NCBI RefSeq assembly: GCF_016429285.1
Contig: NZ_JAELUI010000022.1
Location: 1-50,662 of the forward strand
Reading direction: 5' to 3'
Length of the DNA: 50,662 nucleotides
From: Ralstonia sp. ASV6
Lineage (GTDB): Bacteria > Pseudomonadota > Gammaproteobacteria > Burkholderiales > Burkholderiaceae
This document shows, one piece after another, positions 3,302 through 23,621 of this stretch; position 1 is the first letter of the stretch; every line of letters begins with the position of its first letter. The translations under genes and the position numbers were made by a program. The notes below the pieces were generated by a model. It had not been told where the DNA came from. It searched no databases and saw only the letters and a list, made by a program, of their open reading frames with translations.

Positions 3302-3306
3302 GCGGT

Positions 3307-4001: not shown

Positions 4002-4028
4002 AGATTCTTTCCGACCATCCACCCGCCG

Positions 4029-4325: not shown

Positions 4326-4326
4326 C

Positions 4327-4698: not shown

Positions 4699-4726
4699 TC
4701 CAAGAACACAGAGCGTTGTTGAAGGC

Positions 4727-4755
4727 ATGATAGGTGCACATGTGCACCATGTCAA
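4727..4755 (-). promoter_or_regulatory. sigma-70 promoter with a palindromic operator in the spacer
   Basis: On the minus strand TTGACA (4755-4750) and TATCAT (4732-4727) are separated by exactly 17 bp. The spacer contains a perfect 16-bp palindrome, GGTGCACATGTGCACC (4733-4748). A dimeric repressor bound there would block RNA polymerase, so the unit starting at 4698 is probably tightly regulated. Confidence 0.75.
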
Positions 4756-4797
4756 GCCAGTCATCAACCCCATCCCATTCATCGCCAAGCAGCGTCG

Positions 4798-5502
4798 TCA
4801 TGCGGCGACCGGCCAGTACTTCGTCAGCAGAACCGAAAGGGCAGCTTCAGGCGTTGGGCATGCCACTACCTCATTGGGCCCGCCTAGCGCCACGCTGAAC
4901 GTCCATGTCTGCGACACGTCGCGAACGGTTTGAATGAAGAAGCTCTCACCACTTTCCGTTTGATACCAATGACGTCGATACTCGCCGGGCTTCTCACCCC
5001 CGCCAGCGAAACGAAAGTCGATTGTGCCGGCTCCGCGCTGAATGCGAAGCTGACGCTCGACTTCGGTGCAATACGCTTTGAATTCGTCACCGGTGACACG
5101 TTTGAACCACAAGAGCGAGTCCGGGCCGATCGTCGCTTCCCTGCCAGAGTCGTCCAAGACAACGACTGCGGCAGGGCATTGATGGGGGGCAACGGAAGAA
5201 ATGGGGTAGAGCCTCCCCGCCGTGAATCGGTGTTCGCCCACTCGCTGTGAGCAGGCGGCCTGGGTAGCCTCCAGGCGATCTTCGGGTTCTAGCAACCATG
5301 CAAAGCGATTCACGGTCGCCAGATTCATTTCGGGATTCATCTCGATCAGATCGGCGGCCCACAACTCGTACCTGGATTTTGCTCCGTCTTCGCTCCATCC
5401 CGCGTTGACGTGCTGACGAACAAAATCCGCTGCCACACGCGGATCCGTCTTCGGCGCCTGTTCAACGCCACCGATTGTTGTTGCTTCCGTTGTAAAGCGC
5501 AT
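4798..5502 (-). CDS. hypothetical protein, 234 residues
   Basis: Start MRFTTEATTIGG is chosen; the open frame extends 47 codons further but with low-complexity, non-coding-like residues. The product is soluble and contains DPRVAADFVRQHVNAGWSED, a DDSGREATIGPDSLLWFKRV segment and an aromatic-rich C-terminal half (YRRHWYQTESGESFFIQTV). No signal peptide, membrane segment or known domain was recognised. It lies downstream of the P-loop-like gene on the same strand. Confidence 0.6.
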   Translation of the reverse strand: MRFTTEATTIGGVEQAPKTDPRVAADFVRQHVNAGWSEDGAKSRYELWAADLIEMNPEMNLATVNRFAWLLEPEDRLEATQAACSQRVGEHRFTAGRLYPISSVAPHQCPAAVVVLDDSGREATIGPDSLLWFKRVTGDEFKAYCTEVERQLRIQRGAGTIDFRFAGGGEKPGEYRRHWYQTESGESFFIQTVRDVSQTWTFSVALGGPNEVVACPTPEAALSVLLTKYWPVAA

Positions 5503-5570
5503 GATGGTTTTCGTGAAATGCCTTCGTCGATAAGTGCAGCCAGACGTCGTAGTCGCCGCCGGGGATTTCT

Positions 5571-6395
5571 TTATGAGGACGCCAAGGGGCGCAGCGAGTT
5601 TGCGGGCCTCATGATGGTGTGAGTCGCAGAATGCCCCGGCCATGACAGCCGCACGCGCTCGACGGATTGGGAAGCAGTGGGCCCGCGTGCCACGATGGCC
5701 TCACCCGCCTGCAGGGCGCGTAGGTCGTGGGTGTCGCCCAGCAAGCGATGAAATGTCGCGTTTCCAGGTTCGCTAATTGAGTACATGAATACACGGCACG
5801 TTGCGTGTGCCGCCACTTGATCGTCGTGCAAGTGAGCAAACTCATCGCGATCGCTCACAACGAGTGTTAAGTTCAGGTCGACCACGTTCTCGACGAGCGG
5901 TTTCAACATTGCGGGCAGCCCTTGCAAGCCGCCAATCAGTCCGTCAAGGATCAACACGATTGAGCGCGTTCGATCTTGGCGCGCAGTGATGGCGCGACTC
6001 AGATCCAGAATGGCTTCCGTGCTCCAGACATCTGCCTCAAGCGCAGAGACCTCCAGCGCGCTCGGACCACACCAAAGGATCGCACCCGAGTTGACAATGG
6101 CATCCATGGAAACGGGCGCCAACTCCTTATTTCCCGCTACATCCGCGAAGCATTCAGCCTGACGATTGCTAGCCTCGGCGGCTGTGTAAATCGATGCCCA
6201 TATCCCCGGCTCGCTATGCCAGCCAACATAGATCAAACCAGCGCCACCTTGAATTGCCTGGCGGGCGATTTCGACAAGGAACTGGTTCCGCCCCGAGCCG
6301 AGTGCGCCGACGTTCTGTACGACTGATGGCCCGTCAAGATCGACCGCTTTTGCGAAAGGAATCGAGCTCGTTTTGTTGCCAAGATGAAGTTTCAT
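5571..6395 (-). CDS. P-loop-like protein with altered Walker A, possibly HerA/FtsK-type
   Basis: Encodes 274 residues from MKLHLGNK. Residues 24-50 read VVQNVGALGSGRN and then FLVEIARQAIQGG, in the position and context of the Walker A loop of VirD4/TraD/HerA-type ATPases. The invariant GK(T/S) is replaced by GRN (residues 35-37). A hydrophobic strand ending in aspartate, SIVLILDGL (about 145-153), is a Walker B candidate. The lost lysine suggests weak or no ATP hydrolysis. It could be a paralogue or regulator of the coupling ATPase. The family call is tentative. Confidence 0.5.
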   Translation of the reverse strand: MKLHLGNKTSSIPFAKAVDLDGPSVVQNVGALGSGRNQFLVEIARQAIQGGAGLIYVGWHSEPGIWASIYTAAEASNRQAECFADVAGNKELAPVSMDAIVNSGAILWCGPSALEVSALEADVWSTEAILDLSRAITARQDRTRSIVLILDGLIGGLQGLPAMLKPLVENVVDLNLTLVVSDRDEFAHLHDDQVAAHATCRVFMYSISEPGNATFHRLLGDTHDLRALQAGEAIVARGPTASQSVERVRLSWPGHSATHTIMRPANSLRPLASS

Positions 6396-6448
6396 AGAGT
6401 TTCCCAAAAAATTGGTTGTTGCCTATCGCTCGTTGCTTGAAGCGATGT

Positions 6449-6880
6449 TTAGTCGACTAGGCCAAGGTCACGACATTCGTCGTAGATGTCAGCCCACATT
6501 TCACACTCAATTTGGTCGTATGTTTCTGCAATCGAGCGCTTGTACTCCTCTTCCGCTTCATCGAGGAGGAGACCCACATCGATGGATTCATCCGCGGCGA
6601 TCGCCCATACCTCAAACAGGCGACGAAACCGGGGTATCGCAATCAGAAAACGATGTGAGCGTGCCGACACGTCCCCAAAGCATTCTTTTTTGTCGTCTTC
6701 GTATGGGGTGTTGCCAAAGACTGCGTAATGCACGAATGCGTCCATCCCGCCTTCAGCGCAGTACCGCTTGCGCATCCGGTCAGGTAAATGGAATAGGGCG
6801 AAGCCGATCAAGCCCTCTTCAGCCTTACGGTATCGCTCATTTGCGAGTTCCGCACGCGCTCCCAGGCTCAATTCTTCCAT
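6449..6880 (-). CDS. hypothetical protein, 143 residues, probably the 3' part of a frameshifted gene
   Basis: The ORF proper starts at ATG 6880 (MEELSLGARAELANERYRKA) and encodes a helical, acidic protein with C-terminal IECEMWADIYDECRDLG. The same frame is open upstream without a start codon and encodes a cysteine-rich stretch, CGHPAYDCPGCPERSQFC. That stretch joins, through a run of seven T (A on the plus strand, 6972-6978), to a short frame with a good ribosome site starting at 7044. The full product may therefore be about 198 residues, made by slippage, or the gene may carry a homopolymer error or mutation. Confidence 0.6.
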   Translation of the reverse strand: MEELSLGARAELANERYRKAEEGLIGFALFHLPDRMRKRYCAEGGMDAFVHYAVFGNTPYEDDKKECFGDVSARSHRFLIAIPRFRRLFEVWAIAADESIDVGLLLDEAEEEYKRSIAETYDQIECEMWADIYDECRDLGLVD

Positions 6881-6969
6881 TGATTCTTCTGTGCAAAATT
6901 GGCTGCGTTCTGGACAGCCTGGGCAATCGTATGCAGGGTGACCACAAGAATCGAGTGCGCGTTCCGCAC

Positions 6970-7044
6970 TTAAAAAAAGTCGGTGGAGGGATGCATCGAG
7001 GCGCCCTTGATGAGCTTCTTGACTTGATTTGCGAGAGTCGACAT
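6970..7044 (-). CDS. short ORF (24 residues) leading into the frameshifted gene
   Basis: ATG 7044 follows AGAGGGACAG and encodes MSTLANQVKKLIKGASMHPS and then DFF before TAA at 6970-6972. The stop lies in the TTTTTTTAA run. A -1 shift there continues as LSAERALDSCGHPAYDC and on into the ORF at 6449-6880. It is more likely the true 5' end of that gene than a separate peptide. Confidence 0.5.
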   Translation of the reverse strand: MSTLANQVKKLIKGASMHPSTDFF

Positions 7045-7188
7045 ACCTGTCCCTCTAACGTGTCTCAGTTTGTATTGACGGTGCTTCAATCAGAAGAAAT
7101 GCTTGCGATTTCCGGCACCATGATTTGCGCAACCTGTGCCGCAGCTTCGCTGACGGGATGAAGACCCAAAGCTCTTGGCGAAATGGTT

Positions 7189-7764
7189 TCAGGATTGTCG
7201 AATAGCCTTCAGCGCCGCGTATGTCTTGTGCGCGTCGCCGCGCCCCGCTCTCCACTCTGGCGTTTCACTGTCCATCAGCGCGCAAAGCTCTTCCCAGCGA
7301 TCAACGAGAACCGCCCATTCGCCGGAGACGTCCCGCATTGCCGGCAGCAGCGATGCGAATTCCGGGACCCGCTCGATCAGCAGGCGGCAGCGCCGAAAAT
7401 CCGATGGATCGACAGGACAAGCCGTTGTTCTCGTCCCAATGCCGGTGAACCGAGCAAACATGGCATCGCTGCTCGCGCCCCTATCCCCAGTCGCAAGCCA
7501 TTCGCGTGCTGCAGGAGACAGGTTCGAGTAGTCCTCACCATTGAACCGCGCCCGCGCTGACGCTAGGACATGCGGGTCTTCTCTCAAACGTGCGAGTGCT
7601 TCCGGTTCGCCAACCACGAATGACGCACCAAGCATGCGGGCGAGATCGTGGTCGAGGACGGCCTTCTTGCTGAATCCTCGCGACAGGAGGTCCATAGCGG
7701 AAATGGGTAGTTGCCCGGTGATGATTCGGCAACCGCATTGTTCAGATACCGTGCACTTAGCCAT
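7189..7764 (-). CDS. conserved phage/element-type hypothetical protein, 191 residues
   Basis: The central part reads LSPAAREWLATGDRGASSDAMFARFTG, followed by PVDPSDFRRCRLLIERVPEF and a VSGEWAVLVDRWEELCALMD segment. This layout recurs in hypothetical proteins of Burkholderiales prophages and plasmids, from memory; no function is known. N-terminal cysteines (KCTVSEQCGCR) might bind metal. After its TGA the +1 frame stays open for about 38 further codons of protein-like sequence, so the end of this gene may also be frameshifted. Confidence 0.65.
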   Translation of the reverse strand: MAKCTVSEQCGCRIITGQLPISAMDLLSRGFSKKAVLDHDLARMLGASFVVGEPEALARLREDPHVLASARARFNGEDYSNLSPAAREWLATGDRGASSDAMFARFTGIGTRTTACPVDPSDFRRCRLLIERVPEFASLLPAMRDVSGEWAVLVDRWEELCALMDSETPEWRAGRGDAHKTYAALKAIRQS

Positions 7765-7770
7765 GGCGAA

Positions 7771-8241
7771 TCACGCTCCGAGGATTACGTGAGGTGCCAT
7801 CGCTTCGCGCAAGCCCTCACGATAGAAGGCTCCGTCCTGCATGAGCGTCCTGTATTCCTCGCCGGAGCACCTTTCAGTATCGGCATATAGATCCACCGGC
7901 GTACTGTTGTAAGCACGGGCGCAATGCTGAAACCCGTAGAAGGCCACCATCAACGACGCGACCCCCAGGTTCGAAACCATGGCTGCGTCACCGAACCAAT
8001 CCGTGGCCTTGAACCAGCAATAGAGCGCGACCCGCCGGCCATCGATTTCTCCGGTCGGGTGCTCCACATACACGTCCTGATCGCCGATGTCGTAGTAATG
8101 GGTGATGCGGTATCGCCTCCGACCATCGGCCTCGAATTCGGCAATTTCCGCTTCGCTCAGGTCGTGATCTGGCGAAGGCTGTCCCATCAGCGCACCTGCG
8201 CGTGAGAGGTCGGCGGATCGTTGCTGCACGTTGTTTTCCAT
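7771..8241 (-). CDS. hypothetical protein, 156 residues
   Basis: Start MENNVQQRSADLSRAG at 8241 lies six bases upstream of the following gene's region, in the same operon. A disordered N-terminus is followed by RYRITHYYDIGDQDVYVEHP, which looks like a beta-rich domain. A more hydrophobic stretch, SNLGVASLMVAFYGF, is too short and polar-flanked to be a confident membrane helix. No family was recognised. Confidence 0.62.
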   Translation of the reverse strand: MENNVQQRSADLSRAGALMGQPSPDHDLSEAEIAEFEADGRRRYRITHYYDIGDQDVYVEHPTGEIDGRRVALYCWFKATDWFGDAAMVSNLGVASLMVAFYGFQHCARAYNSTPVDLYADTERCSGEEYRTLMQDGAFYREGLREAMAPHVILGA

Positions 8242-8290
8242 AGATCGGTCCGGTTAGTGACTTCCGTTGAAGGAATAGCGGCTACGCCAC

Positions 8291-8635
8291 TTAGACGTTA
8301 TCGGCGACCTCGCCGACGGTCTTTCCTGTAGCGATGTCGGTCAGCAGCCAGAGCCCAGAGGACAACAGCGTTGCGCGCGTGCCCGGATGCCTCGATTCCA
8401 TCATCGCTTGGCGCGCGAGGTACGCCTTGCGTTCCCTCTTCATTTTTGTGGCGTCAATCCGACTGCGGATTTCGCCAGCGATACCGAGCACAACAAAGAA
8501 CACCAAAACTGCAAGCCCGAACCATTTGAATGACTCCCAACCGCTCATCGCGTACTTGCCCTGGGTATACCGAGCAAAGACGGTGTAGAAGATGAGAAGG
8601 ACGACCGCGAGCGATGGCAGCATTTCGGTGAGCAT
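8291..8635 (-). CDS. inner-membrane protein, 114 residues
   Basis: Two hydrophobic segments (about residues 7-22, LPSLAVVLLIFYTVFA, and 36-54, FKWFGLAVLVFFVVLGIAG) are followed by a basic cytoplasmic tail containing SRIDATKMKRERKAYLARQ. It is likely a two-pass membrane protein. It lies immediately after the prepilin peptidase gene, which makes a link to pilus assembly possible. No homologue was recognised. Confidence 0.65.
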   Translation of the reverse strand: MLTEMLPSLAVVLLIFYTVFARYTQGKYAMSGWESFKWFGLAVLVFFVVLGIAGEIRSRIDATKMKRERKAYLARQAMMESRHPGTRATLLSSGLWLLTDIATGKTVGEVADNV

Positions 8636-8651
8636 CGGAGACTCCGTTTAG

Positions 8652-9365
8652 TTAGATAAGGGTGGCCAATACTTCGGCCGGAGAGAATGGCCAGGTCAGG
8701 AGGGCAACCATCCCCGCCGCAGAGATAAATGGCCCGAAAGCGAGAATCTGACCTGCTGCGGTCGCCCGCAACCGTGTTTGAACGGCACCGACGACACATG
8801 CAGCGATCGATGCGGCGATCAGGATTTCGAGAACAGGGCCCCAGCCTAGCCACGCTCCCAGTGCTGCAAGCAGCTTTGCATCGCCGAGACCGATACCTTC
8901 GGCTCGCCGCCACGTCCGCATGGAGAGTTGGCGCGCCGCCCATAGCGCGGCGTATCCGAGAGCTGCACCGAGCAAGGCACTTGGGAGCGTCACCAGGGCA
9001 TCCGTTGAATTGATGACGAGCCCGGCAACCAACATGGGAACGGTGAGGAAATCCGGCAACAGCCTCGCGTGCAAATCGATGAGCGACAGGATCAGCAGCA
9101 CATAGCAGGCAGCGGCAACGAAGCCGATCAACGGGCTGGTGCCGAGCCTCTGCAGCAGAACGAGCGCCAACGCCCCACAGGCGATCGCACATAGAACGCT
9201 TGGCACCCAATCTCTCGCTATGTCCGGACGGAGCCACAGTGCCGAAGGCTCAAGGCCGTAAGACACCGCCAGCGCATGCAGGATATGGCGTGCAGCCAAC
9301 GGCGCCACGGCGCCCGCACCCAACCCCAGTGCCAGACAACTGACCTCAAGGAGCAGGCCAGTCAT
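8652..9365 (-). CDS. type IV prepilin peptidase (A24 family)
   Basis: Encodes 237 residues from ATG 9365, which overlaps the TGA of the preceding gene (ATGA). This aspartic membrane protease cleaves the leader from type IV prepilins at the cytoplasmic face. Both catalytic sites are visible: Asp97 in LSLIDLHARLLPD, and Asp162 in the EGIGLGDAKLL (GxGD) motif. About seven hydrophobic segments are present. It lacks the N-terminal zinc and methylase domain of PilD, as do the TadV/CpaA and plasmid PilU-type enzymes. It should serve the pilus implied by the TcpQ-like protein. Confidence 0.85.
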   Translation of the reverse strand: MTGLLLEVSCLALGLGAGAVAPLAARHILHALAVSYGLEPSALWLRPDIARDWVPSVLCAIACGALALVLLQRLGTSPLIGFVAAACYVLLILSLIDLHARLLPDFLTVPMLVAGLVINSTDALVTLPSALLGAALGYAALWAARQLSMRTWRRAEGIGLGDAKLLAALGAWLGWGPVLEILIAASIAACVVGAVQTRLRATAAGQILAFGPFISAAGMVALLTWPFSPAEVLATLI

Positions 9366-9559
9366 GCGTCGGCACCATTCGATTTCGCTGCGACCACCTC
9401 GAAGACTTCGTCGACATAGGCACACATGATCTCGCCCACGATCTTCCCCACCCGAGCGCGATAAAAGACGAAGCCATGCGAGACATCGGTAACCACAAAC
9501 TCGCGCCCGGTGTCCCGTTCTCTGAGTCCCGTATAGGACTGGATGGATGGTGTTTGCAC
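9362..9559 (-). CDS. small protein (65 residues) coupled to the prepilin peptidase
   Basis: The start is the GTG at 9559 (MQTPSIQSYTGLRERDTGRE) preceded by GAGGGGG. The open frame continues upstream, but only through promoter sequence. The product has a beta-like core, FVVTDVSHGFVFYRARVGK, and an acidic helix, MCAYVDEVFEVVAAK. Its stop overlaps the start of the prepilin peptidase, so the two are translated together. Function unknown. Confidence 0.65.
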   Translation of the reverse strand: MQTPSIQSYTGLRERDTGREFVVTDVSHGFVFYRARVGKIVGEIMCAYVDEVFEVVAAKSNGADA

Positions 9560-9578
9560 GACAACCCCCTCGGGTATG

Positions 9579-9609
9579 TTGCAAAAAAAAATATGTTTTC
9601 GTATTATAC
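9579..9609. promoter_or_regulatory. divergent promoter with conserved operator (site A)
   Basis: On the plus strand TTGCAA (9579-9584), a 17-bp spacer and TATTAT (9602-9607) form a promoter for the genes from 9687. On the minus strand TATAAT (9608-9603) can serve the pair starting at 9559. The spacer carries ACGAAAACATATTTTTTTT in minus orientation, the same motif found at 39.57, 44.90 and 47.13 kb. Confidence 0.62.
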
Positions 9610-9686
9610 AGCACACACAACGCCACAAAGCGAGCAGAATTCGCCGTTGTGGTTTGAGAATTTTTCCGAATTGTGAGGGCTGGGGG

Positions 9687-9935
9687 ATGCTGCGTCGGGT
9701 GCTGGGAGCGATCTTGTTTGTAGTGGCGGCGCCTTTCGCGTGCTTCCCCTTCGTGCACCTGTACGTGCTCTGGGGGATGTGGGGCAGCAGCCAAGTCCCT
9801 GAACACTGGGTGCAGAACCTCGTCATCGCCTTCTGCTTTGGCGCGCTGGGCGGCTTTGGCAGTTACGAGGGTTGGCGGATATTCAGCCGCCGTCAGCCAC
9901 AAGCAGGCTTGGTAACCCAAGAAACGTCACGCTAA
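9687..9935 (+). CDS. small two-pass membrane protein, 82 residues
   Basis: ATG 9687 follows GAGGGCTGGGGG; in-frame upstream codons lie in the divergent promoter. Hydrophobic segments are LGAILFVVAAPFACFPFVHL (residues about 6-25) and LVIAFCFGALGGFG (about 45-58), with a basic tail. It is the first gene of the plus-strand operon. No family was recognised. Confidence 0.62.
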   Translation: MLRRVLGAILFVVAAPFACFPFVHLYVLWGMWGSSQVPEHWVQNLVIAFCFGALGGFGSYEGWRIFSRRQPQAGLVTQETSR

Positions 9936-9986
9936 ACCTGAAGCGCTGTTCGACATCAACAACATGATCAACAGAGTGGAGTGCGT

Positions 9987-10286
9987 ATGACCGGCACCAA
10001 GAACTTTGACATCGGCAACGGGAACCTGGAGCAGATCCAGTTGGGGGGCACCATTGCACTAGCACTCGCTGCATTCGCAAGCGTACTCGTTGCCATCGTG
10101 ATGACTTTGGGTGCGCTGCAAAACGTCTCTTCGTTCACTACCCCGATGGGTGTAACGCTCTTGGCCATCATTGCTTTGTTGACGCTCATTACGAGGCAGC
10201 AGCATGCACGCCGGAGAGCTCAGATCCTCGCCGGTGAGCACGTCAAACGAGCCGTCGAGCAAATACTCGCTCGCTCGACAACGTAG
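9987..10286 (+). CDS. membrane protein, 99 residues
   Basis: ATG 9987 is chosen over GTG 9981 because GGAG ends at 9981. Two hydrophobic segments (IALALAAFASVLVAIVMTLG and MGVTLLAIIALLTLIT) are followed by a basic, helical C-terminus (RQQHARRRAQILAGEHVKRA). Likely an inner-membrane protein with both ends in the cytoplasm. Function unknown. Confidence 0.65.
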   Translation: MTGTKNFDIGNGNLEQIQLGGTIALALAAFASVLVAIVMTLGALQNVSSFTTPMGVTLLAIIALLTLITRQQHARRRAQILAGEHVKRAVEQILARSTT

Positions 10287-10307
10287 CAAGAATTGCAGGA
10301 GGGTGGG

Positions 10308-10493
10308 ATGCACCGTTACCTCATCTACACGGCACCAGGCCAATCGCATCCACGCTTTGCTACCCGCTGGCTCTTTGTGGCGTCGCTGATTGCCACCTAT
10401 CGCTGCGCCTTCCTTCCCTACTGCCGCATCGATGATGCGGTGCTCGGCAAAACACTGTTTCTCGACGACGGCGCCGTAGCCGGCAGCCGGTAG
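10308..10493 (+). CDS. hypothetical protein, 61 residues
   Basis: ATG 10308 lies behind GGAGGGTGGG. The product begins MHRYLIYTAPGQSHPRFATR and has a moderately hydrophobic centre (WLFVASLIATYRCAF). Nothing in it points to a function. The gene fits the operon's spacing. Confidence 0.55.
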   Translation: MHRYLIYTAPGQSHPRFATRWLFVASLIATYRCAFLPYCRIDDAVLGKTLFLDDGAVAGSR

Positions 10494-10517
10494 CCAGCAA
10501 TCCCTCCAGGACCATCC

Positions 10518-11213
10518 ATGCACGAATTCTTCCTTGCGCTTGCCCGCCTTGATCTCTTTCACGGCTGGCAAAGCTACGCAGGCCTCCTCGCTACTGCTAT
10601 CGGGCTTCCTCTGCTGTATCTCATCGCGCGTTTCTCCCTCGTACGACGAGACGCCGCCTACAAGCGCCGCATGAACCTCTGGGGTGGCGCGGCCATCCTC
10701 ATGGGTTGCATGGGTCTCTCGCTCATCGTCCTCAATTCAGCCGTCCAAGCCGCTCTCTGGCCGTCCATGATGGGCTCCATCACGCAGAACTACGCGCTCG
10801 GCAGCGCACTGGCGACCGTATGCAAGGCTGATCCTGCAAAGCTCCGAGAAGGCGAGATGGCCGACGCTGCTACCAAGTTGCGCGATCGCGACGTCCTTTG
10901 GAAGTCCGTGGGGTCCGGAGCCGCCTCACCACTGGCTGCAGCTGCCGATATCCCCTGTGATCGCATCCCGGTGTCCAACCGAGCACTAATGTTGCTGGCC
11001 ACCGCGCGCGACGCTGGACTCGTCGGCGCGCACCTGGCCGCTGGCTGGATCGTCACGCTGTCGCTCGCCCCATTGCTGATGCTCATCGCACTCCTGCGCG
11101 CTGCAGAAGCACCTTTGCGCTGGCCGACGCTGCGCAAGGGTTCTGGCTTGTTCGGTGGCGGAAACGCGACGAACACCAGCAGCCGAGAAACTGAAGAGTC
11201 TGCCCGTTGGTAA
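10518..11213 (+). CDS. polytopic membrane protein, 231 residues
   Basis: Hydrophobic segments occur at about residues 20-40 (YAGLLATAIGLPLLYLIARF), 55-75 (GGAAILMGCMGLSLIVLNS) and 175-195 (AAGWIVTLSLAPLLMLIALL). A soluble domain of about 90 residues between the second and third contains two cysteines (ATVCKADPAK, DIPCDRIPVS) and is presumably periplasmic. The C-terminal tail is polar. No family was recognised. Confidence 0.65.
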   Translation: MHEFFLALARLDLFHGWQSYAGLLATAIGLPLLYLIARFSLVRRDAAYKRRMNLWGGAAILMGCMGLSLIVLNSAVQAALWPSMMGSITQNYALGSALATVCKADPAKLREGEMADAATKLRDRDVLWKSVGSGAASPLAAAADIPCDRIPVSNRALMLLATARDAGLVGAHLAAGWIVTLSLAPLLMLIALLRAAEAPLRWPTLRKGSGLFGGGNATNTSSRETEESARW

Positions 11214-11240
11214 CACCAACCTGATCGAGAGGAGCTGACC

Positions 11241-11459
11241 ATGCCCGACGAAATCGATATTGCAAACGACTACGCCCAGCGCACGCTGGAGCAGGCGATC
11301 GCCGCCGCTCGCGTAAATCCGAAATCCCATCAGCGGGTTGACCAGTGCCTCAACGAATGTGGCGAACCACCTGCCGAAGGGTCGTCGTACTGCTGCCATG
11401 AATGCAAGGTCGATGCGGAGCGCCGGCAAGCCATCCGGCGCTGCCAAGGCGTGGCCTGA
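11241..11459 (+). CDS. DksA/TraR-like C4 zinc-finger protein, 72 residues
   Basis: An N-terminal helical stretch (DYAQRTLEQAIAAARVNPKS) is followed by CLNECGEPPAEGSSYCCHEC, a C-x3-C / C-x2-C arrangement with the CGEP turn of the DksA/TraR family. Plasmid TraR and phage homologues of this size bind RNA polymerase in the secondary channel and mimic DksA/ppGpp. Here the first pair is C-x3-C where C-x2-C is usual, so the call is moderate. A global regulator would suit the element. Confidence 0.6.
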   Translation: MPDEIDIANDYAQRTLEQAIAAARVNPKSHQRVDQCLNECGEPPAEGSSYCCHECKVDAERRQAIRRCQGVA

Positions 11460-11489
11460 GCACCAAGCGTCAAACCACCAACCGCACTC

Positions 11490-12728
11490 ATGACCAAATC
11501 AACCGCTGCCCGTCAGATTGATCTCTTCGAACATGTGGCTGGGGCGTATGCCCAACCACAGTCCGGGCGCCTGACCAATGCTGAGCTCTATCGCATGGCA
11601 GTCGGCCGTGCCGGCGTGGATCCCAAGCTCTTGAACGAGACCGCTCCAGTCGGCCGTGCCGGCGATCAACGCAGCCTCCTGAAGCGTGCCATCCGCTGGC
11701 ATCAGCAAACGCTTCGCAGCCTTGGCTTGATCGAGCGCGTCGAAGGTGAGCGCGCGGTATGGGAGCTGACGGAAGCGGGAAAGAAAAAGATGCGAACGGT
11801 GAAGGACAACATCGCCGCCATCGCCTTCAGCACGGATCTTGGCCTCGCGATCTGGGGCAACTGCCATCACGTTTTCTCAAAATGGGACGAGCCCATTTTT
11901 CTCGCGCTGACCTCGACGCCGTACCCGCTGCAGAAGCCACGCGCATACGGCAATCCCCCCGTCGAGGATTTCATCGACTTCATCTCGCGTGTGGTGGAGC
12001 CCATCGCGAACAAGCTGGTGCCAGGCGGCAACATCCTGCTCTCGCTGAGCAACGACGTGCACTTGCCTAAATCCCCTGCGCGCTCGCTCTACTTCGAAAA
12101 GCTGACCATCGCACTCTGCGAGCGCTTCGGCCTCTACAAGATGGACACCCTGATTTGGGAGTCCAACAAGGCGCCGGGTCCGATCCAGTGGGCCAGCCTG
12201 CAGCGGATGCAATTCAACACGGCCTACGAGCCGATTCTGTGGCTGTGCAACGACCCGGTCCGGTGCATCGCCAACAACCAACGCGTCCTGGAACCGCATA
12301 CCGAGCAGCACCAGAAGCTGATCGACCAGGGCGGCGTCAAGCATGTCGCTGTCAATGGTGACGGAGTGTATCGCCTACGCCCAGGATCCTATGGGAACCC
12401 CACCGCTGGGCGCATCCCTCGCAACGTGCTCCACGTCCCAAACAATTGCGCAAGCCAACGTGCCTACAAGAAGCGTGCACGCGAGATCGGCCTACAACCT
12501 CACGGCGCGCCGATGCCACTCGCACTGGCACGCAAGCTCATCCGGTTCATGACGGACGTCGATCAGCTGGTGGTCGACCCGTGCGCGGGATCGATGACGA
12601 CGGCTCTGGCCAGCGAGCTTGAGGGACGACGCTGGGCAGCGACGGACGTTGTGTACGACTACGTCCGGGGCGCCGCAGAACGATTTCGCCAGTTTGAAGG
12701 ATTCGACCTAGCGCTTGATGCCGCGTGA
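11490..12728 (+). CDS. DNA (N4-cytosine or N6-adenine) methyltransferase
   Basis: Encodes 412 residues. The N-terminal part (about 25-105) resembles a winged-helix domain found in Mrr-like and methylase proteins (SLLKRAIRWHQQTLRSLGLI). The catalytic motif IV is LTSTPYP (residues 140-146) and the S-adenosylmethionine motif I is VVDPCAGSMTT (about 361-371). The order IV-then-I is that of beta-class enzymes, and the S-x-PY form favours N4-cytosine. Substitution of the usual SPPY by STPY is worth noting. It is followed by a PD-(D/E)XK nuclease and a helicase, so it probably protects self DNA in that cassette. Confidence 0.85.
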   Translation: MTKSTAARQIDLFEHVAGAYAQPQSGRLTNAELYRMAVGRAGVDPKLLNETAPVGRAGDQRSLLKRAIRWHQQTLRSLGLIERVEGERAVWELTEAGKKKMRTVKDNIAAIAFSTDLGLAIWGNCHHVFSKWDEPIFLALTSTPYPLQKPRAYGNPPVEDFIDFISRVVEPIANKLVPGGNILLSLSNDVHLPKSPARSLYFEKLTIALCERFGLYKMDTLIWESNKAPGPIQWASLQRMQFNTAYEPILWLCNDPVRCIANNQRVLEPHTEQHQKLIDQGGVKHVAVNGDGVYRLRPGSYGNPTAGRIPRNVLHVPNNCASQRAYKKRAREIGLQPHGAPMPLALARKLIRFMTDVDQLVVDPCAGSMTTALASELEGRRWAATDVVYDYVRGAAERFRQFEGFDLALDAA

Positions 12729-12823
12729 ATGCGGGCGGCGGTCCGGCGTTATTTGTCAAAAAAATCCACAACTTTAGGCATCTCGCTGCGCATTTGATGA
12801 TCTCGTGCACCAGGAGCAAACCG

Positions 12824-13210
12824 ATGGAAGCACTTGCCGTTGTTGAGCACAACACAATCGCGGTGGAGATCGTTCAGTTGCTGCAACGGTGCCGCTTTGA
12901 CCTGTCGACTGAAAAGCACCTCCAAGCTGGTGTAGAGCAAGCGTTACGGGGTGCCGGATTCGACTTTGCTCGCGAGAAGCGCCTGTCTTCTCAGGACATC
13001 CCCGATTTCTTGGTGTCCGGCGGCGTGGTCATCGAATGCAAAATGCGCAACAAATCCAGCAAGATGGAGGTGTTCCGCCAGATCTCCCGCTACGCCGAGC
13101 ACGCCGAGGTGACGGCCATCATCCTGGCCTCGAATATGTCGATGGGGCTGCCGCCGGAACTGAACGGCAAGCCGCTCTATTCGGCATCGCTCAGCCGAGG
13201 TTGGCTATGA
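12824..13210 (+). CDS. PD-(D/E)XK nuclease-like protein, 128 residues
   Basis: ATG 12824 follows CCAGGAG. Residues 59-73 read IPDFLVSGGVVIECK, so Asp61, Glu71 and Lys73 match the PD...ExK active site of restriction-type nucleases. An upstream glutamate helix (EKHLQAGVEQAL) fits the first conserved acid. At 128 residues it is a bare catalytic domain. Its TGA overlaps the ATG of the helicase (ATGA), so the two are co-translated and probably act together. Confidence 0.8.
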   Translation: MEALAVVEHNTIAVEIVQLLQRCRFDLSTEKHLQAGVEQALRGAGFDFAREKRLSSQDIPDFLVSGGVVIECKMRNKSSKMEVFRQISRYAEHAEVTAIILASNMSMGLPPELNGKPLYSASLSRGWL

Positions 13211-14955
13211 CGCGTACCTACGGCTGTCTGCAGCTCGTCGACGGCGGGACAAAGTGGGAGATGTCCAAGATCGAGCCGCATGTCGCCATCCGGCTCAAGC
13301 ACCTTTTCCCGCGCGTCCCGAAAAATTCCACAGGGCCCTACTACTTCCCGCGCGACTTGGCTCACGCTGCGGATCTCGATTGGTTCATCTCACGCTATCC
13401 GCTCTTCATGAGCGAGGGCGACAGGCAGGCACTACGCGGCGGCCGCCTGGCGTTTGAGCACGAGCAGGCCGAGCTCGAAAGAATCCTGTTGCCAGACTAC
13501 TCGCCGCCGCCCATGCTGGGCTTGCGAGATGGCCAGAAGATTCGCCTGTACCAATCGCAAGCAGTAACGCTCGTGCAGATGCGAAAGAGCTTACTGCTAG
13601 GCGATGAGGGCGGACTCGGGAAGACTTACGTCGCCGGAGCGTTCCTTGCTTCGACACCTGGCGCACTCCCCGCCGCAGTCGTTTGTGATCCGCACATGCA
13701 GAAGCAGTGGCGTGACAAACTGACCACGTTCACGACGTTGCGGGTCCATGTCATTAAAAAGGCATCGCCCTACAATCTACCGCCCGCGGACGTCTATATT
13801 TTCCGGATCAGCCAGATCGGCGGATGGATCGATTTCTTCAACGAAGGGTTCTTCAAGGCCGTCGTTTACGACGAGCCGCAGAGTCTTCGCACCGGCGATC
13901 AGACGGCTAAGGGCGCCGCCGCGCGCGTGCTCTCGAACCACACCGAATATCACCTAGGACTGTCCGCGACTCCCGTGTACGGCTATGGCCGGGAGATCTG
14001 GCAAATCCTGAGCTTTATCGATGCCGATGTCCTCGGGACCCGGGAAGATTTCGAGCGCGAATGGCTCGACGATGACGGCAGGATCAATGACCCCGAGGCA
14101 CTCGGTACGTTCCTGCGTGAACAACACGTGTTTCTGCGGCGCCTCAAGGCTGATGTTGGCCTGGAGCTTCCGAAGGTGTCGCGCATCGTTGAGCACGTCG
14201 ATTTTGACGCTAAGGCCGTGCAGAGCATTGAGGAGCTCGCAAAGAAGCTGGCCATTCGCGCGACGACAGGCTCATTTGTCGAACGTGGCGCCGCAGTGCG
14301 CGAGCTCGACATGATGGTCCGCCAAGCGACCGGGGTCTCCAAAGCGAAATCGGTCGCGCAGTTTGTGCGACTCATGGTCGAAGCTGGCGAGCCCGTTCTG
14401 TTGGCAGGTTGGCATCGCGAGGTCTACAGTATTTGGCAGCAGGAGTTGGGGGACCTGCGCCCGGCCATGTATACCGGTTCAGAATCGCCCACGCAAAAGG
14501 AACGCGAGAAGGAGCGATTCCTAAACGGCGATACCGATGTGATGATTATCTCTCTGAGATCTGGCGCTGGATTGGACGGCCTGCAGGAGCGCTGCTCAGT
14601 GTTGGTCATTGGAGAATTGGATTATAGCCCTGGAGTCCACCAGCAATTACTGTGGCGCATCGATCGTGAAGGACAGAAAAATCCGGTGATTGCCTTCTTC
14701 CTCGTCAGCGAAGAAGGAAGCGATCCGCCCATCATGGACGTACTCGGTATCAAGGCCAGCGAGGCTCATCACGTCGTCGATCCAAACCTTGGTGTCCAAC
14801 AAACAGACAACGACACATCGCATCTCAAGCGCTTGGTCCAACACTACCTTGACAAGGTGAATCGCCGCGCCAAGGAAGATATCGCCGCAGATGGTGGCTC
14901 CAAGATCATGGAGCCACAAACCGATCGCTCCGAACAACAGCTGCTACCCATCTAA
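13207..14955 (+). CDS. SNF2-like superfamily 2 helicase
   Basis: Encodes 582 residues from ATG 13207 (MTRTYGCLQL). Walker A is LGDEGGLGKTY (131-141). Motif II is VVYDEPQS (223-230), an unusual DEPQ in place of DEAH or DEXQ. Motif III is LSATP (256-260). Motif VI is QQLLWRIDREGQK. Its N-terminal 100 residues are not a known nuclease. SNF2-type motors with a methylase and a nuclease occur in restriction and defence systems, where they translocate on DNA. The overlapping start with the nuclease gene supports a complex. Confidence 0.85.
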   Translation: MTRTYGCLQLVDGGTKWEMSKIEPHVAIRLKHLFPRVPKNSTGPYYFPRDLAHAADLDWFISRYPLFMSEGDRQALRGGRLAFEHEQAELERILLPDYSPPPMLGLRDGQKIRLYQSQAVTLVQMRKSLLLGDEGGLGKTYVAGAFLASTPGALPAAVVCDPHMQKQWRDKLTTFTTLRVHVIKKASPYNLPPADVYIFRISQIGGWIDFFNEGFFKAVVYDEPQSLRTGDQTAKGAAARVLSNHTEYHLGLSATPVYGYGREIWQILSFIDADVLGTREDFEREWLDDDGRINDPEALGTFLREQHVFLRRLKADVGLELPKVSRIVEHVDFDAKAVQSIEELAKKLAIRATTGSFVERGAAVRELDMMVRQATGVSKAKSVAQFVRLMVEAGEPVLLAGWHREVYSIWQQELGDLRPAMYTGSESPTQKEREKERFLNGDTDVMIISLRSGAGLDGLQERCSVLVIGELDYSPGVHQQLLWRIDREGQKNPVIAFFLVSEEGSDPPIMDVLGIKASEAHHVVDPNLGVQQTDNDTSHLKRLVQHYLDKVNRRAKEDIAADGGSKIMEPQTDRSEQQLLPI

Positions 14956-14978: not shown

Positions 14979-15008
14979 AACAATCAGTCGGACCAATACC
15001 GGTAGAAC

Positions 15009-15386
15009 ATGATGAAGAAAGCCTTCCTAGCACTCGCATTCATTTCCGCAGCAATGGCCACCGGCCACACTGCCGCGGCGGCGTCCGAGCAACCCGCGTC
15101 TTCGCCGACAACTCAACTCCGCCAAATCGCCTATCGCATCGACGTCGACAAGGATGACAAGCACATCAGCACCGGCTACGCTCTCACCCTCCAAGGGCAG
15201 ACCGTCAGGTATAGCGTCAAGACTTGCCTGGGTGCGGACGAATGCGAGAAAGGGATGGGAACCAACGGCATCACCGTGTCCATTACTCCGACCGTCCTGC
15301 CCGACGGCACGCTCGCTACCGACACGAAATTCGACAGCCTCGTCCCCGGTTTGGAGGTGACTGTTACGCCGACTATGGTCCAATAG
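15009..15386 (+). CDS. secreted protein with signal peptide, 125 residues
   Basis: The N-terminus MMKKAFLALAFISAAMA with a following A-x-A-rich stretch (TAAAASEQ) is a classic Sec signal peptide, probably cleaved near residue 24. The mature part is beta-rich (YALTLQGQTVRYSVKTC) with two cysteines that could form a disulfide. No known domain was recognised. It sits between the helicase and the broken ATP-grasp gene. Confidence 0.68.
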   Translation: MMKKAFLALAFISAAMATGHTAAAASEQPASSPTTQLRQIAYRIDVDKDDKHISTGYALTLQGQTVRYSVKTCLGADECEKGMGTNGITVSITPTVLPDGTLATDTKFDSLVPGLEVTVTPTMVQ

Positions 15387-16174
15387 TCATCCTCGCCGGA
15401 TAGTGTCTTCCCTGCTCCACTGAACGCATTGAGCGCGCTCCCTCCACACACGATGTCCGAAAGCGTTGCCATCTTCGTGCAGAACAACTACGTGGAGCGC
15501 CTGACCGCGCCTGTCGCGATCTTTGCCCGCGCCGCGGGCATCACGCTATACGACCGCTCATCAACCACCAACTTCGATCCTGACGACTGCGGCATTGATT
15601 GGACTGGATTCCGTTTCGTGTTGACCTATGGATCCGTCCAATTTCTTCGGTAACTCAAGACCAGCTCCCTGGCGCGCTTCGTTCAGCATGACGAAGCGCG
15701 GTTTGCCACTCAGGCCTCGGCCAGGTCTTTCGGTCCTGACGCCCTGAACGGAACAGGACGCATAGTCAAGGCGCGCGACGTTGCCTCAGTCCTTGCCCAC
15801 GAAGGTCCAGCTCACATTCGCCCCGACTCTCTGGACAAAGCCTTCACAGGGGCAGTCGTCGACGCCGAAGGGTGGAGAAAGATCGAAATTGAACGGGACC
15901 TATCGAACGAACTGGACTGCTGGATGAGTCCACTGCGGAAAATCGATGCGGAATGGCGGTGCTGGTTTGTCGGCGGCCGCCTGATCGAGATCAGCAAGTA
16001 TCGGGAGAACGGCGAACGCGCTCTTGAGCGCGATGTGGACCCGCAGCTCTGGCAGGCAGCGCAAAGTCTTGCTGACCGGTACCTGCCCGCCCCCTGCGTG
16101 GCTCTTGACATTGCCAGGGCAGATGGCGGTGTTGGTTCCGACGCTATTTGCAAACGGCGGGGCAATTTCCATCG

Positions 16175-16507
16175 CTATTCGCGAACAGAGTCCCGCCCTC
16201 GAAATGAGATTTCGAGATCCTTAAAGCCCGAAAACGGGCCGTCGTGGGCGATACGCCAACCTAGCTCCCAGGCTTCACGCAACTTCGGTTCCAACCCTTG
16301 CGGACATGCGGTGATGGGCTGTCCATCACGCGCCGCGCGCTCACCACTCTGGATATATGGTCGGGCCCGGACGTTCTCGAATGTGAACAGCCAATGGTTA
16401 GCCTCATCGCTGCCCGCAGCATGAGGGCAGGCGAGGTCCGTCATGCCCCGCTCGACCGCAAGCGCTGCTTCGCCTTCGATGCGATCCCAGTATTCCCCAT
16501 CGTCCAT
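16175..16507 (-). CDS. hypothetical protein, 110 residues, cargo of the small element
   Basis: ATG 16507 follows AGAGG and lies 15 bases after the preceding stop. The protein (MDDGEYWDRIEGEAALAVER ...) is soluble and acidic with AWELGWRIAHDGPF near the C-terminus. Two cysteines occur (LACPHAAG, ITACPQG). No domain was recognised. Its stop at 16175 is 25 bases from the left inverted repeat. Confidence 0.55.
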   Translation of the reverse strand: MDDGEYWDRIEGEAALAVERGMTDLACPHAAGSDEANHWLFTFENVRARPYIQSGERAARDGQPITACPQGLEPKLREAWELGWRIAHDGPFSGFKDLEISFRGRDSVRE

Positions 16508-16521
16508 CGTTGCCTCTTCGT

Positions 16522-16812
16522 CTAGTTTGTGCGCTCTCGCCCGCAGTTCTCGTTCGCGCACAGCGCTTGGAAGGGAGCGTTTCCCTTGCCGCATACCGAG
16601 CACTTCCAGCCGGCTTGCAACGCGTGTCGCCCGCATTGCGCAAGGCACTGCCCCTCGTGAAAGCAATCGCCGCTTGCAACCGTGCATTCCGGTGCAGGGA
16701 CGAACACAGGGTTGCCAAAATTGCCGTCCTGTTGCTGCAAGTGCTTGATCTTGCTGTGGATCATCTTCTGCGCCATGCGTTTTGCCATGCAAATTGCGGT
16801 GGACATTCGCAA
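16522..16812 (-). CDS. zinc-ribbon-like protein, 96 residues, cargo of the small element
   Basis: The frame starts at 16812 (MRMSTAICMAKRMAQKM). The C-terminal end, WKCSVCGKGNAPFQALCANE plus NCGRERTN, is a C-x2-C...C-x4-C zinc ribbon. Further cysteines lie in the centre (ECTVASGDCFHEGQCLAQC). It might bind nucleic acid, but no family was recognised. It begins 18 bases inside the right inverted repeat of the element. Confidence 0.55.
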   Translation of the reverse strand: MRMSTAICMAKRMAQKMIHSKIKHLQQQDGNFGNPVFVPAPECTVASGDCFHEGQCLAQCGRHALQAGWKCSVCGKGNAPFQALCANENCGRERTN

Positions 16813-17192
16813 ATAACCCTGTGCAATCTCATTTAGTGCTGGAACTTACAGGCGGCTACAAGGTCATCGAGTTCAATCCCATCCACTCGTCTGGCTGGTA
16901 TGCGGCTGATGTCGAAGTAGTGCTTCGGTCTTGGGTCGAGTGGGCGAACGCCAGCACGGGGCTCCACAGTCAGGCCAGAACCGCTGGCGGTTGACCCACT
17001 CCAACGCCGCCCCGTTTCTGCGACCTTCATCTGACATCGCTCTCTTCCCTTTGCTTACGCAGCACCGTTCCGGTGTCGCTGTTCTGCCCGCCGGAAAGCC
17101 CTAACTCAAGGTTGACTTGTCCATCGCATTTCCTTCACTCGGCTGCCGGCCGGTGGCGGAGCGCTCACGCGCCGGCTTGTTCTTCCTTGGTA

Positions 17193-17489
17193 TCAGTTGC
17201 CAGTCGAATCGCGACTGTTTTGCTCGCTCGCGAAATGGCGACTGGTCAAGATCAGACCACACCAGATGACCAATGCAATCCCGAGGCCGAACGCCAACAC
17301 GAAGCCGTGACGCAACAACGACAGGTTTGCGCTCGTAAGCGATTCGAGTAGCGGAATGATGTGACTGTATCCATATCCAGCGAACAACAGCAGCGCGAGA
17401 GCGCAAGCCAGCAACTCCCACGCTCCCCGGCGCACGTCACGATTCACGGCTCTGAGCAACGCTGTCATTTCTTCGTGTAGGTTCATCAT
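17193..17489 (-). CDS. two-pass membrane protein, 98 residues
   Basis: Start MMNLHEEMTALLRAVNRDVR is chosen as the first residue before coherent sequence. Hydrophobic segments are WELLACALALLLFAGYGYSH (about 24-43) and FVLAFGLGIALVIWCGLIL (about 65-83). The short loop and the amphipathic N-terminus are cytoplasm-type. It is the last gene of the 17.2-21.4 kb minus-strand group. The 200 bases downstream, to the end of the broken ATP-grasp gene, hold no convincing gene. Confidence 0.6.
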   Translation of the reverse strand: MMNLHEEMTALLRAVNRDVRRGAWELLACALALLLFAGYGYSHIIPLLESLTSANLSLLRHGFVLAFGLGIALVIWCGLILTSRHFASEQNSRDSTGN

Positions 17490-17500
17490 TTTCCTTGTTG

Positions 17501-17692
17501 CTAGCGGCGTGAGTAAATTGGGAGCTTCGGCTCCACATCCCAAGGCTTCACACGCAACTCGTCACCGAACGCTTCCCCGCCTTCGTCAATGAACCGGATG
17601 ACAACGTAAGGTGCCTCGTTCGTGTACTCGCGTCCTAACACGCGGCACTTCCGGCCATTGAATGTATGCAGCGGTGCGTGCAGGTCGGCCAC
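17501..17692 (-). CDS. hypothetical protein, 63 residues
   Basis: The start is the GTG at 17692, seven bases after AGGAAAG. The product begins MADLHAPLHTFNGRKCRVLG and continues YVVIRFIDEGGEAFGDELRV. It is a small beta-rich protein of a kind common in plasmids. No known domain was recognised. Confidence 0.55.
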   Translation of the reverse strand: MADLHAPLHTFNGRKCRVLGREYTNEAPYVVIRFIDEGGEAFGDELRVKPWDVEPKLPIYSRR

Positions 17693-17705
17693 CGAGTCTT
17701 TCCTA

Positions 17706-18191
17706 TTAGTCTGAACTGAAGGCCGAACGCTGGGCGCTCTCAAGCACTTTGTTGCCGCTTGCTTCCTTCGCTTGCCTTGCCATGCGTGCTCGAAAGCGAT
17801 CTGCGCACAAGCCCCGACCCAGCAAGCTGTAAAGCTCTTTCACCGCCAACCACGGCTGTTTGTTTTGGTCTGAGTGTTTCACAAAAACTTCGTAAGCGAC
17901 TTCCAACTCGTTGAGCACGTCCTTGGATGCGTTTGCCTTCAGGTAGGAGACCGCGGCGACAGAGATAGGCCGACGCTCTCTTTCAAAGCTTCCCTGACAC
18001 ATCCAATGGTCGCCATCCCGACTGAGGCGACAAATGAGCGAGCAGACCCGCGCCTTAATGGCCTCCCACGAGAGTGGCGGCATCGACAACGCGATTGCCC
18101 GGCAAACCACTGCCGCATCGTGGCGCGACAGATACCAATCCGCATCACCCAGGCTAGCGAGATGCTGCCGGTCCATTTCTTCATCTGTCAT
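17706..18191 (-). CDS. hypothetical protein, 161 residues
   Basis: Helical soluble protein starting MTDEEMDRQHLASLGDADWY. The central stretch DAAVVCRAIALSMPPLSWEA and the basic C-terminus (RFRARMARQAKEASGNKVLE) give no family match. Four cysteines are scattered without a zinc pattern. It is followed 14 bases later by the 63-residue gene. Confidence 0.6.
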   Translation of the reverse strand: MTDEEMDRQHLASLGDADWYLSRHDAAVVCRAIALSMPPLSWEAIKARVCSLICRLSRDGDHWMCQGSFERERRPISVAAVSYLKANASKDVLNELEVAYEVFVKHSDQNKQPWLAVKELYSLLGRGLCADRFRARMARQAKEASGNKVLESAQRSAFSSD

Positions 18192-18231
18192 CGTTCGTTC
18201 CCTCCTGCCAGCACTGCCGGCGTTTTTCTGT

Positions 18232-18504
18232 TCAGTCCGCGATCATTTCGGCCAGCCGAGCGAGGACGCGTCGGGCGAATTCTGGAGCTGCCTGCTTCGC
18301 AGCTTCAATAGTAGGGAATCCACCTGTCTTGAAATGCAGGAAGTGCAGATCGAATGCACCGCCGTCATCGGTTATCGCCATCATCTCTTGCCCACCAAAG
18401 CGAGCCATCTGAATCACGCGCCCATCACCACCATTCGGGTCCACCCAACGCTGCTGAGGTGCGTTGAACGCGACCCGACCACCACCATCTATCTCGATGT
18501 TCAT
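18232..18504 (-). CDS. hypothetical protein, 90 residues
   Basis: MNIEIDGGGRVAFNAPQQRW suggests a beta-strand-rich N-terminus. The C-terminal half, PTIEAAKQAAPEFARRVLAR, is helical. It may be a small DNA- or protein-binding accessory factor. No family was recognised. It is spaced 40 bases from the next gene. Confidence 0.55.
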   Translation of the reverse strand: MNIEIDGGGRVAFNAPQQRWVDPNGGDGRVIQMARFGGQEMMAITDDGGAFDLHFLHFKTGGFPTIEAAKQAAPEFARRVLARLAEMIAD

Positions 18505-21436: not shown

Positions 21437-21757
21437 CTATTCAGCGAAAACTTCCTGCAATGTCTGCAGGGTGCTCAACAAGGTTTTATCGGCAACTACG
21501 CCCTCTTTCTTGACCAGGCGCACCTTGTCGACCGCACGAATCTGGTCCAGCAAAATCAGCCCACTCCTCTTCATGAAGGTGATCGGCACCCGGAACGGAG
21601 CCGGCCGGCCCTTCGTCGTCATCGGAGCAACAATGACCGTTCGCAGATGGTCGTGCATCTCCGGTGGGGAGACGATCACGCACGGCCGCGTCTTCTCAAT
21701 CTCGCCGCCCTTCGTCGGGTCTAGGGCTACGAGCCAAATCTCTCCGCGCGCTACCAC
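21437..21757 (-). CDS. mazF: MazF/PemK-family mRNA interferase toxin
   Basis: Encodes 106 residues beginning MVARGEIWLVALDPTKGGEI, the standard start of the MazF fold, with the conserved KTRPCVIVSP strand and the central TVIVAPMTTKGR. MazF dimers cut mRNA at short sequences and stop growth when the antitoxin decays. The gene overlaps the antitoxin by 7 bp, as in most mazEF/pemIK/chpB pairs. On a mobile element this pair would favour retention. Confidence 0.92.
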   Translation of the reverse strand: MVARGEIWLVALDPTKGGEIEKTRPCVIVSPPEMHDHLRTVIVAPMTTKGRPAPFRVPITFMKRSGLILLDQIRAVDKVRLVKKEGVVADKTLLSTLQTLQEVFAE

Positions 21758-21999
21758 ACCAGCTCCGTGTCGTCAGCATTGGGGAATTCGCCCATCACCA
21801 GCGCATCATCACCGGCAGCCGCGACGGCCTGGCTGGCTTCAGCCCAGCCCTCGCGCGCCTTCTTCTGTGGCTTGCGGATCACCAGCGCATTGTCCTCCAC
21901 TGCCATATCCACCTCATTCTCCAAACCTAGCTGGGCAAGAATGGGCTTGGGGATCAACACCCCCTGCGAATTGCCCATCTTGCGTATCGTTGCCTTCAT
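21751..21999 (-). CDS. mazE: MazE/PemI-family antitoxin
   Basis: Encodes 82 residues. The N-terminal MKATIRKMGNSQGVLIPKPI is the swapped-hairpin AbrB/MazE DNA-binding domain. The acidic C-terminal tail (GDDALVMGEFPNADDTELVW) is the segment that wraps and neutralises MazF. The complex represses its own promoter; palindromes suited to this lie at 22028-22065. Confidence 0.92.
   Translation of the reverse strand: MKATIRKMGNSQGVLIPKPILAQLGLENEVDMAVEDNALVIRKPQKKAREGWAEASQAVAAAGDDALVMGEFPNADDTELVW

Positions 22000-22001: not shown

Positions 22002-23621
<1,620 letters not shown>

What the first reader, a model, noticed from the sequence alone, without database searches (positions are those of the whole stretch)
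16125..16855. 721-bp non-autonomous transposon-like insertion carrying two genes
Removing 16130-16855 restores an ATP-grasp reading frame exactly (GAT GGC GG + C TAC). GGCGG is duplicated at both sides, and the ends form TGT..GTTCC..C.CTA inverted repeats of about 21 bp. Five-bp duplications and TGT ends are the hallmark of Tn7- and Tn402-type transposition. The cargo is two unknown genes, one with a zinc ribbon, and no transposase.
Basis: partly seen in the sequence, partly recalled or inferred. Interest (0 to 1): 0.75.

Follow-up and report, generated by a model that had tools for sequence, protein, structure and literature searches.

The report
Miniature Tn7-like element with ribosome-factor gene
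A 721-base piece of DNA without a transposase of its own has ends like those of a Tn7-like jumping gene, sits inside another gene, and carries a small gene related to a ribosome-silencing protein; a diverged copy sits in a different place in a Pandoraea genome.

Summary
A 721-bp insert (16130-16850) with TGT...ACA ends and a perfect 5-bp duplication splits an R2K ATP-grasp gene. It is best read as a non-autonomous element with Tn7-type ends. A diverged copy lies in Pandoraea terrigena between unrelated flanks. Both copies carry the same asymmetric array of a repeated motif: 13 and 44 bp from one tip, 13, 33 and 53 bp from the other. The same genome has TnsA, TnsB, TnsC and TniQ genes inserted in comM. 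The two tips at comM resemble the corresponding tips of the element (35/62 and 35/72; 0 of 2064 control segments reach this), the opposite tips much less. So mobilisation in trans by this kind of machinery is likely, but inferred. The gene shared by both copies encodes an RMF/CrpP-family protein, apparently two units in tandem, with dN/dS 0.20. The "zinc ribbon" gene is weakly supported. The element is rare in what was searched. Novelty: a known principle (MITE-like element) in a new variant.

The parts
16125..16129 (.). left copy of the 5-bp target duplication GGCGG
   Evidence: sequence
16130..16191 (+). A-type end of the element, boxes at 16142-16154 and 16173-16185
   Evidence: like the tnsA-side tip of the comM transposon, 35/62
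16175..16507 (-). RMF/CrpP-family gene, 110 aa, apparently two RMF units; its stop overlaps the second box
   Evidence: Pfam PF04957, NCBIfam NF041886, dN/dS 0.20, model
16522..16788 (-). small ORF of 88 aa with a zinc-finger-like C-terminus; start codon uncertain, its 5' end overlaps the innermost B box
   Evidence: Pfam only sub-threshold; no NCBIfam or PHROG hit
16779..16850 (-). B-type end of the element, boxes at 16826-16838, 16806-16818 and 16786-16798
   Evidence: like the far tip of the comM transposon, 35/72
16851..16855 (.). right copy of the duplication GGCGG
   Evidence: sequence
15924..16129 (+). part of the interrupted R2K ATP-grasp gene left of the insert (the frame extends further upstream, with an in-frame stop)
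16851..16994 (+). part of the ATP-grasp gene right of the insert

Best explanation
The insert is a natural non-autonomous transposon with Tn7-like ends. Shown by sequence: TGT/ACA tips, a 5-bp duplication, asymmetric arrays of a repeated motif, no transposase gene, and a diverged copy elsewhere with the same array spacing and the same RMF-type gene. Inferred: a TnsB supplied in trans by a Tn7-like transposon of the kind found in comM binds the boxes (two on the A end, three 20 bp apart on the B end), pairs the ends and, with TnsA, cuts the element out and pastes it elsewhere, copying 5 bp; here it landed in an ATP-grasp gene. The TnsABC genes in the same genome, or a close relative of them, are the best candidate. 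The gene that both copies kept probably makes a ribosome-binding protein that damps translation under stress; that function and its benefit are inferred.
For: Termini and duplication. Window against the 18-kb Pandoraea locus: matches only at 16135-16498 and 16789-16850, so similarity is confined to the element. Boxes at 13/44 on both A ends and 13/33/53 on all three B ends. TnsA, TnsB, TnsC/TniB, TniQ next to a tip that is the only place at 2 or fewer mismatches in the genome besides the element's own ends. Type-specific tip similarity: A 35/62 and 35/62, B 35, 35 and 33 of 72, each reached by 0 of 2064 control segments; opposite types 20-27 of 62. Facing pairs of the end motif in only these two of 398 family genomes. 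RMF gene under purifying selection between the copies, dN 0.20, dS 1.03.
Against: One copy in the own genome; no allele without the insert was found; no movement was observed. Duplications at the Pandoraea copy (AGCAA/AGCAC, outer pair) and at comM (GCGGC/GCGGT) match only 4 of 5, and the inner Pandoraea B end has no matching flank. The comM tips score low against the element's box motif itself: C82 10 and 8 of 13, C23 below 8 at all three places, so that TnsB may not recognise the element. Without the first 10 bp, 2 of 2064 controls reach the value for the window's B end. The comM tniQ runs into a repeat end and may be broken. No TnsB relative at E 1e-40 or better was reported for the Pandoraea genome in the set that I searched.
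Confidence: 0.75

Rival explanations
1. Deletion remnant: a full Tn7-like transposon inserted here and later lost its tns genes, leaving tips and two cargo genes; the mini-form never moved.
For: One copy in the own genome; the second copy lacks a perfect duplication.
Against: Both copies lack tns genes and keep the RMF gene directly at the A end, so two similar deletions would be needed.
Confidence: 0.15
2. A different transposase family (for example Tn402/Tn5053-type TniA) moves it.
For: The own genome has four Mu-transpos_C matches, three outside C82; 5-bp duplications and TGT tips are shared by these families (recalled).
Against: Only the C82 transposon had a tip within 3 mismatches of the element pattern next to such a gene among the places; the fetched stretches around the other three (about 3 kb each) had 5 or more mismatches, but these do not reach the ends of those elements.
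Confidence: 0.08
3. Chance: GGCGG is a common 5-mer in G+C-rich DNA and the repeat is coincidence.
For: 14 of 21 is a modest inverted repeat.
Against: Second copy with the same array spacing between unrelated flanks.
Confidence: 0.02

Closest known systems
Tn7-like transposons inserted in comM (TnsABC-TniQ; Tn6022/AbaR type, name recalled)
   Same: TGT tips, 5-bp duplication, arrays of roughly 20-bp boxes that differ between the two ends; tips similar to those at comM in this genome
   Different: The element is 721 bp and has no tns or tniQ gene
Bacterial MITEs, TIMEs and integron mobilisation units
   Same: Short, no transposase, presumed to move in trans (review PMC10969869, passages seen)
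   Different: Asymmetric Tn7-type ends; one copy per genome; cargo gene kept by selection. The two mentions of Tn7 counted in that review do not describe such an element in the passages seen
RMF and CrpP proteins
   Same: Over curated cut-offs of Pfam RMF and NCBIfam Rmf_CrpP_fam and Rmf_like_phage
   Different: Apparently two units in 110 aa (two matched stretches; model); weak against solved RMF 2jrm (E 0.35); no Foldseek match at E 0.001

Membership tests
Tn7-like transposon (autonomous) | TGT/ACA tips with 5-bp target duplication | tested here: met
Tn7-like transposon (autonomous) | arrays of about 20-bp transposase sites at both ends, often asymmetric | tested here: met
   by sequence only; criterion from passages of PMC8649781 and PMC13370975
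Tn7-like transposon (autonomous) | TnsA, TnsB and TnsC genes within the element | tested here: not met
   only small ORFs inside; hence not filed as an autonomous Tn7-like transposon
MITE-like element moved in trans | short, no transposase, own terminal repeats | tested here: met
MITE-like element moved in trans | ends like those of an autonomous element in the cell | tested here: met
   partial similarity, 35/62 and 35/72; box motif differs
MITE-like element moved in trans | several copies in the genome | tested here: not met
   one copy, (a 21-bp match on C282 lies in an ordinary gene)
MITE-like element moved in trans | actual mobilisation by the partner | not testable with these tools
   needs an experiment
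Tn402/Tn5053 family | partner machinery TniA-TniB-TniQ-TniR without TnsA (recalled) | tested here: not met
   the transposon with similar tips has TnsA; other TniA-like genes of the genome were not followed to their ends
RMF/CrpP protein family | score over curated cut-offs | tested here: met
   35.6 bits against 27.9; 42.1 against 28
RMF/CrpP protein family | single unit of about 55-65 residues (recalled) | tested here: not met
   110 aa with two matched stretches
RMF/CrpP protein family | ribosome binding and dimer formation | not testable with these tools
   needs an experiment

The most novel reading that the evidence does not exclude
A natural family of transposase-less Tn7-type mini-elements, under or about 1 kb, travels between Burkholderiaceae genera and uses the machinery of Tn7-like transposons that carry defence genes. 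Its constant core is the two ends plus a tandem RMF gene locked to the A end, which may serve the element by slowing translation under stress; extra B ends, as in Pandoraea, let it capture neighbouring genes.
Probability: 0.3. Interest if true: 0.65.

Novelty: new variant of a known kind. Interest (0 to 1): 0.45.

Why it matters
The large survey of Tn7-like cargo starts from tnsB genes (PMC8649781, passages), so it would not see elements of this sort. If such mini-elements are real passengers, Tn7-like machinery moves more genes than counted. They also give natural minimal pairs of Tn7-type ends, and tie that system to a mobile gene of the ribosome-hibernation family.

Tried and rejected
More copies. 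DNA of the element: no match in plasmids or phages, Pandoraea copy none in plasmids. RMF protein: none in plasmids, phages or viral contigs (6 stretches, 0 relatives); 3 of 299 family genomes, one weak; 1 of 369 class genomes, the own one; genome contigs 1 relative of 32 stretches. End patterns: 0 in viral contigs; 3 of 398 family genomes, one of them a lone hit; 1 of 300 order genomes, the own one (this search was insensitive, since it missed even the element's own B end, which has 2 mismatches). The weak RMF hit L005 was read by eye, without obvious ends, and not scanned by script. The zinc ORF has one plasmid-collection match of 32 residues in an unannotated stretch.

Dropped readings. The 127 bp shared by the window start and C82 first looked like a second tniQ copy; a third place on C41 before a different sequence shows the end of a multi-copy repeat, probably an insertion sequence (family not determined by any search). 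A likeness of the duplication to the comM site was dropped by eye because the end types would be turned round. A 21-bp identity on C282 lies in an ordinary gene.

No result. Foldseek: nothing at E 0.001. No promoter- or terminator-like site in 16000-17000, no Rfam match in 15000-18500, no PADLOC match for the two cargo proteins. Empty sites: in 32 Pandoraea genomes only the query locus and 3 short matches (one of these, L072, is an unrelated gene); ATP-grasp piece not in plasmids. Genus not established: nearest plasmid-collection DNA is 73-84% in the rows listed, mostly Burkholderia and Cupriavidus.

Papers. Searches; capped listings were seen for most. None of the titles and abstract starts listed describes a natural non-autonomous Tn7-like element; one search was useless because 'comm' matched common words. 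The library holds open-licence papers only. Passages were seen of PMC8649781, PMC10969869 and PMC13370975; no paper was read whole.

Full report
WHAT IS THERE. The window carries a 721-bp insert at 16130-16850. One tip reads TGTTGGTTCC, the other, read inward, TGTAAGTTCC; GGCGG stands on both sides. Without the insert and one GGCGG the flanks join as GAT GGC GGC TAC AAG in frame, and Pfam R2K_3 runs to position 141 on the left piece and from 140 on the right. The inverted repeat is 14 of 21. Among 25 TGT..ACA pairs 300-3000 bp apart with identical 5-bp flanks in the window it is the best; the next has 10 of 21. The interrupted gene has another in-frame stop upstream, so the insert may not have been what first broke it.

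A SECOND COPY. In 299 genomes of the family, the RMF-type protein has one close relative besides itself (71%, E 6.5e-48, G074) and one weak one (E 3e-4). G074 is Pandoraea terrigena LMG 31013: the one relative found among 32 stretches in genome contigs lies on a contig of the same length at the same place. Window and Pandoraea locus (18,001 bp) match only at 16135-16498 (73.6%) and 16789-16850 (74.2%), so similarity is confined to the element. The Pandoraea copy has one A end and two B ends, 559 and 1135 bp from the A tip. The outer pair is flanked by AGCAA and AGCAC, 4 of 5 alike; the inner B end is followed by ACCGC. It has no zinc-type ORF beside the RMF gene; an 89-aa ORF lies between its two B ends.

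END ANATOMY. A motif near CGCTATTTGCGAA stands at 13 and 44 bp from the tip of both A ends and at 13, 33 and 53 bp from the tip of all three B ends, with 8 to 13 of 13 letters. Of 2071 TGT-starting segments of four sequences, 9 have two or more positions with at least 9 of 13, and the five element ends are among these nine. Arrays of about 20-bp sites whose outermost member lies about 12 bp from the boundary mark Tn7-like transposons (PMC8649781, passages); unlike ends are typical (PMC13370975, passages).

A PARTNER IN THE SAME GENOME. With up to 3 mismatches the end pattern occurs at 8 places in the genome, the reversed control at 4. At 2 or fewer there are three: the element's own two ends and G000:C82:4257-4277. 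That is the tip of a Tn7-like transposon in comM. TnsA (229 aa) starts 55 bp inside, followed by TnsB (625 aa), TnsC/TniB (299 aa) and TniQ. The 5' part of comM lies on contig C23 and ends at another TGT tip; the flanking 5-mers are GCGGC and GCGGT. The tnsA-side tip matches both A ends at 35 of 62, the far tip the B ends at 35, 35 and 33 of 72; 0 of 2064 control segments reach any of these. Opposite types give 20-27 of 62, values reached by 6 to 642 of 2064 controls. Without the first 10 bp the A values and the inner Pandoraea B value are reached by 0 of 2064, the window's B value by 2 of 2064; the outer B end was not tested this way. Against this, the comM tips fit the element's box motif poorly: C82 has 10 and 8 of 13 at 13 and 44, C23 under 8 at 13, 33 and 53, although a TGC core stands at the expected places 20, 40 and 60 of C23 (noticed after the fact).

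TnsB relatives (E 1e-40 or better) were reported in 37 of 249 family genomes, the own one included. In 18 loci with such genes that I scanned for tips, three (L026, L027, L062) carry a full match to a terminal pattern upstream of tnsB; that pattern was drawn partly from the element and C82, so this is support and no independent test. The partner's tniQ runs into a repeat end that also starts the window and contig C41 and may be broken.

CARGO. The gene next to the A end (16175-16507, minus) encodes 110 aa of the RMF/CrpP family: Pfam RMF 35.6 bits (cut-off 27.9), NCBIfam NF041886 42.1 (cut-off 28), two stretches. An AlphaFold2 model from two sequences has mean pLDDT 80.2, but the five models range from 34.6 to 80.2; its helices 3-19, 34-60 and 74-89 with an ACP loop between each fit two fused RMF units, which is my reading. 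Foldseek gave no match at E 0.001, best 1.2, and by sequence RMF 2jrm has E 0.35. Over 108 codons dN is 0.20 and dS 1.03, so the protein was kept by selection. The other ORF (16522-16788) ends in W-x-C-x2-C-x3-N-x6-C-x4-C; it has no family support.

HOW IT PROBABLY WORKS (inferred). TnsB of a comM-type transposon binds the boxes and pairs an A with a B end; TnsA and TnsB cut and paste the 721 bp. The extra B end in Pandoraea suggests that an outer B end can be used, taking neighbouring DNA along. The RMF-like protein probably lowers translation under stress.

AGAINST. One copy in the own genome, no empty allele found, no movement seen, imperfect duplications at the Pandoraea copy and at comM, a partner with somewhat different boxes and a possibly broken tniQ, and the chance that the element is a deletion remnant of a larger transposon.

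NOVELTY. Transposase-less elements moved in trans are a known kind (review PMC10969869, passages). In the listings I saw no natural one with Tn7-type ends; the library is partial. I rate it a new variant of a known kind.

Noticed in passing
window 22150-23621 and 21437-21999: An argininosuccinate synthase gene (argG) next to a PemK/MazF-MazE pair on a contig that also has DnaB, DnaG, topoisomerase III and SNF2-type helicase genes, so probably on a mobile replicon.
   Followed up: partly
window 1-127; G000:C82:1-127; G000:C41:1-126: The same 126-127 bp starts three contigs and then gives way to different sequences (a DUF5677 fragment, tniQ, a gene on C41), as the end of a multi-copy repeat, probably an insertion sequence.
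   Followed up: partly
L058 (G000:C23:42300-57461) 2812-13595: Inside the comM interruption lie genes matching defence families: IetA/IetS, a caspase-helicase protein and an RT-protease (UG-type) protein (PADLOC).
   Followed up: partly
L006 8803-9379: The Pandoraea copy has a second B end 576 bp beyond the first, with an 89-aa ORF between them: possible capture of neighbouring DNA by use of an outer end.
   Followed up: partly
L005 about 1040-1230 (G080:C26): Repeated stretches like CCCACTTACTNTGAGA and their reverse look like another array of transposon-end boxes, near a weak RMF match.
   Followed up: no
window 15429-16129: The R2K ATP-grasp frame has an in-frame stop upstream of the insert, so the gene may have been inactive already.
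   Followed up: no
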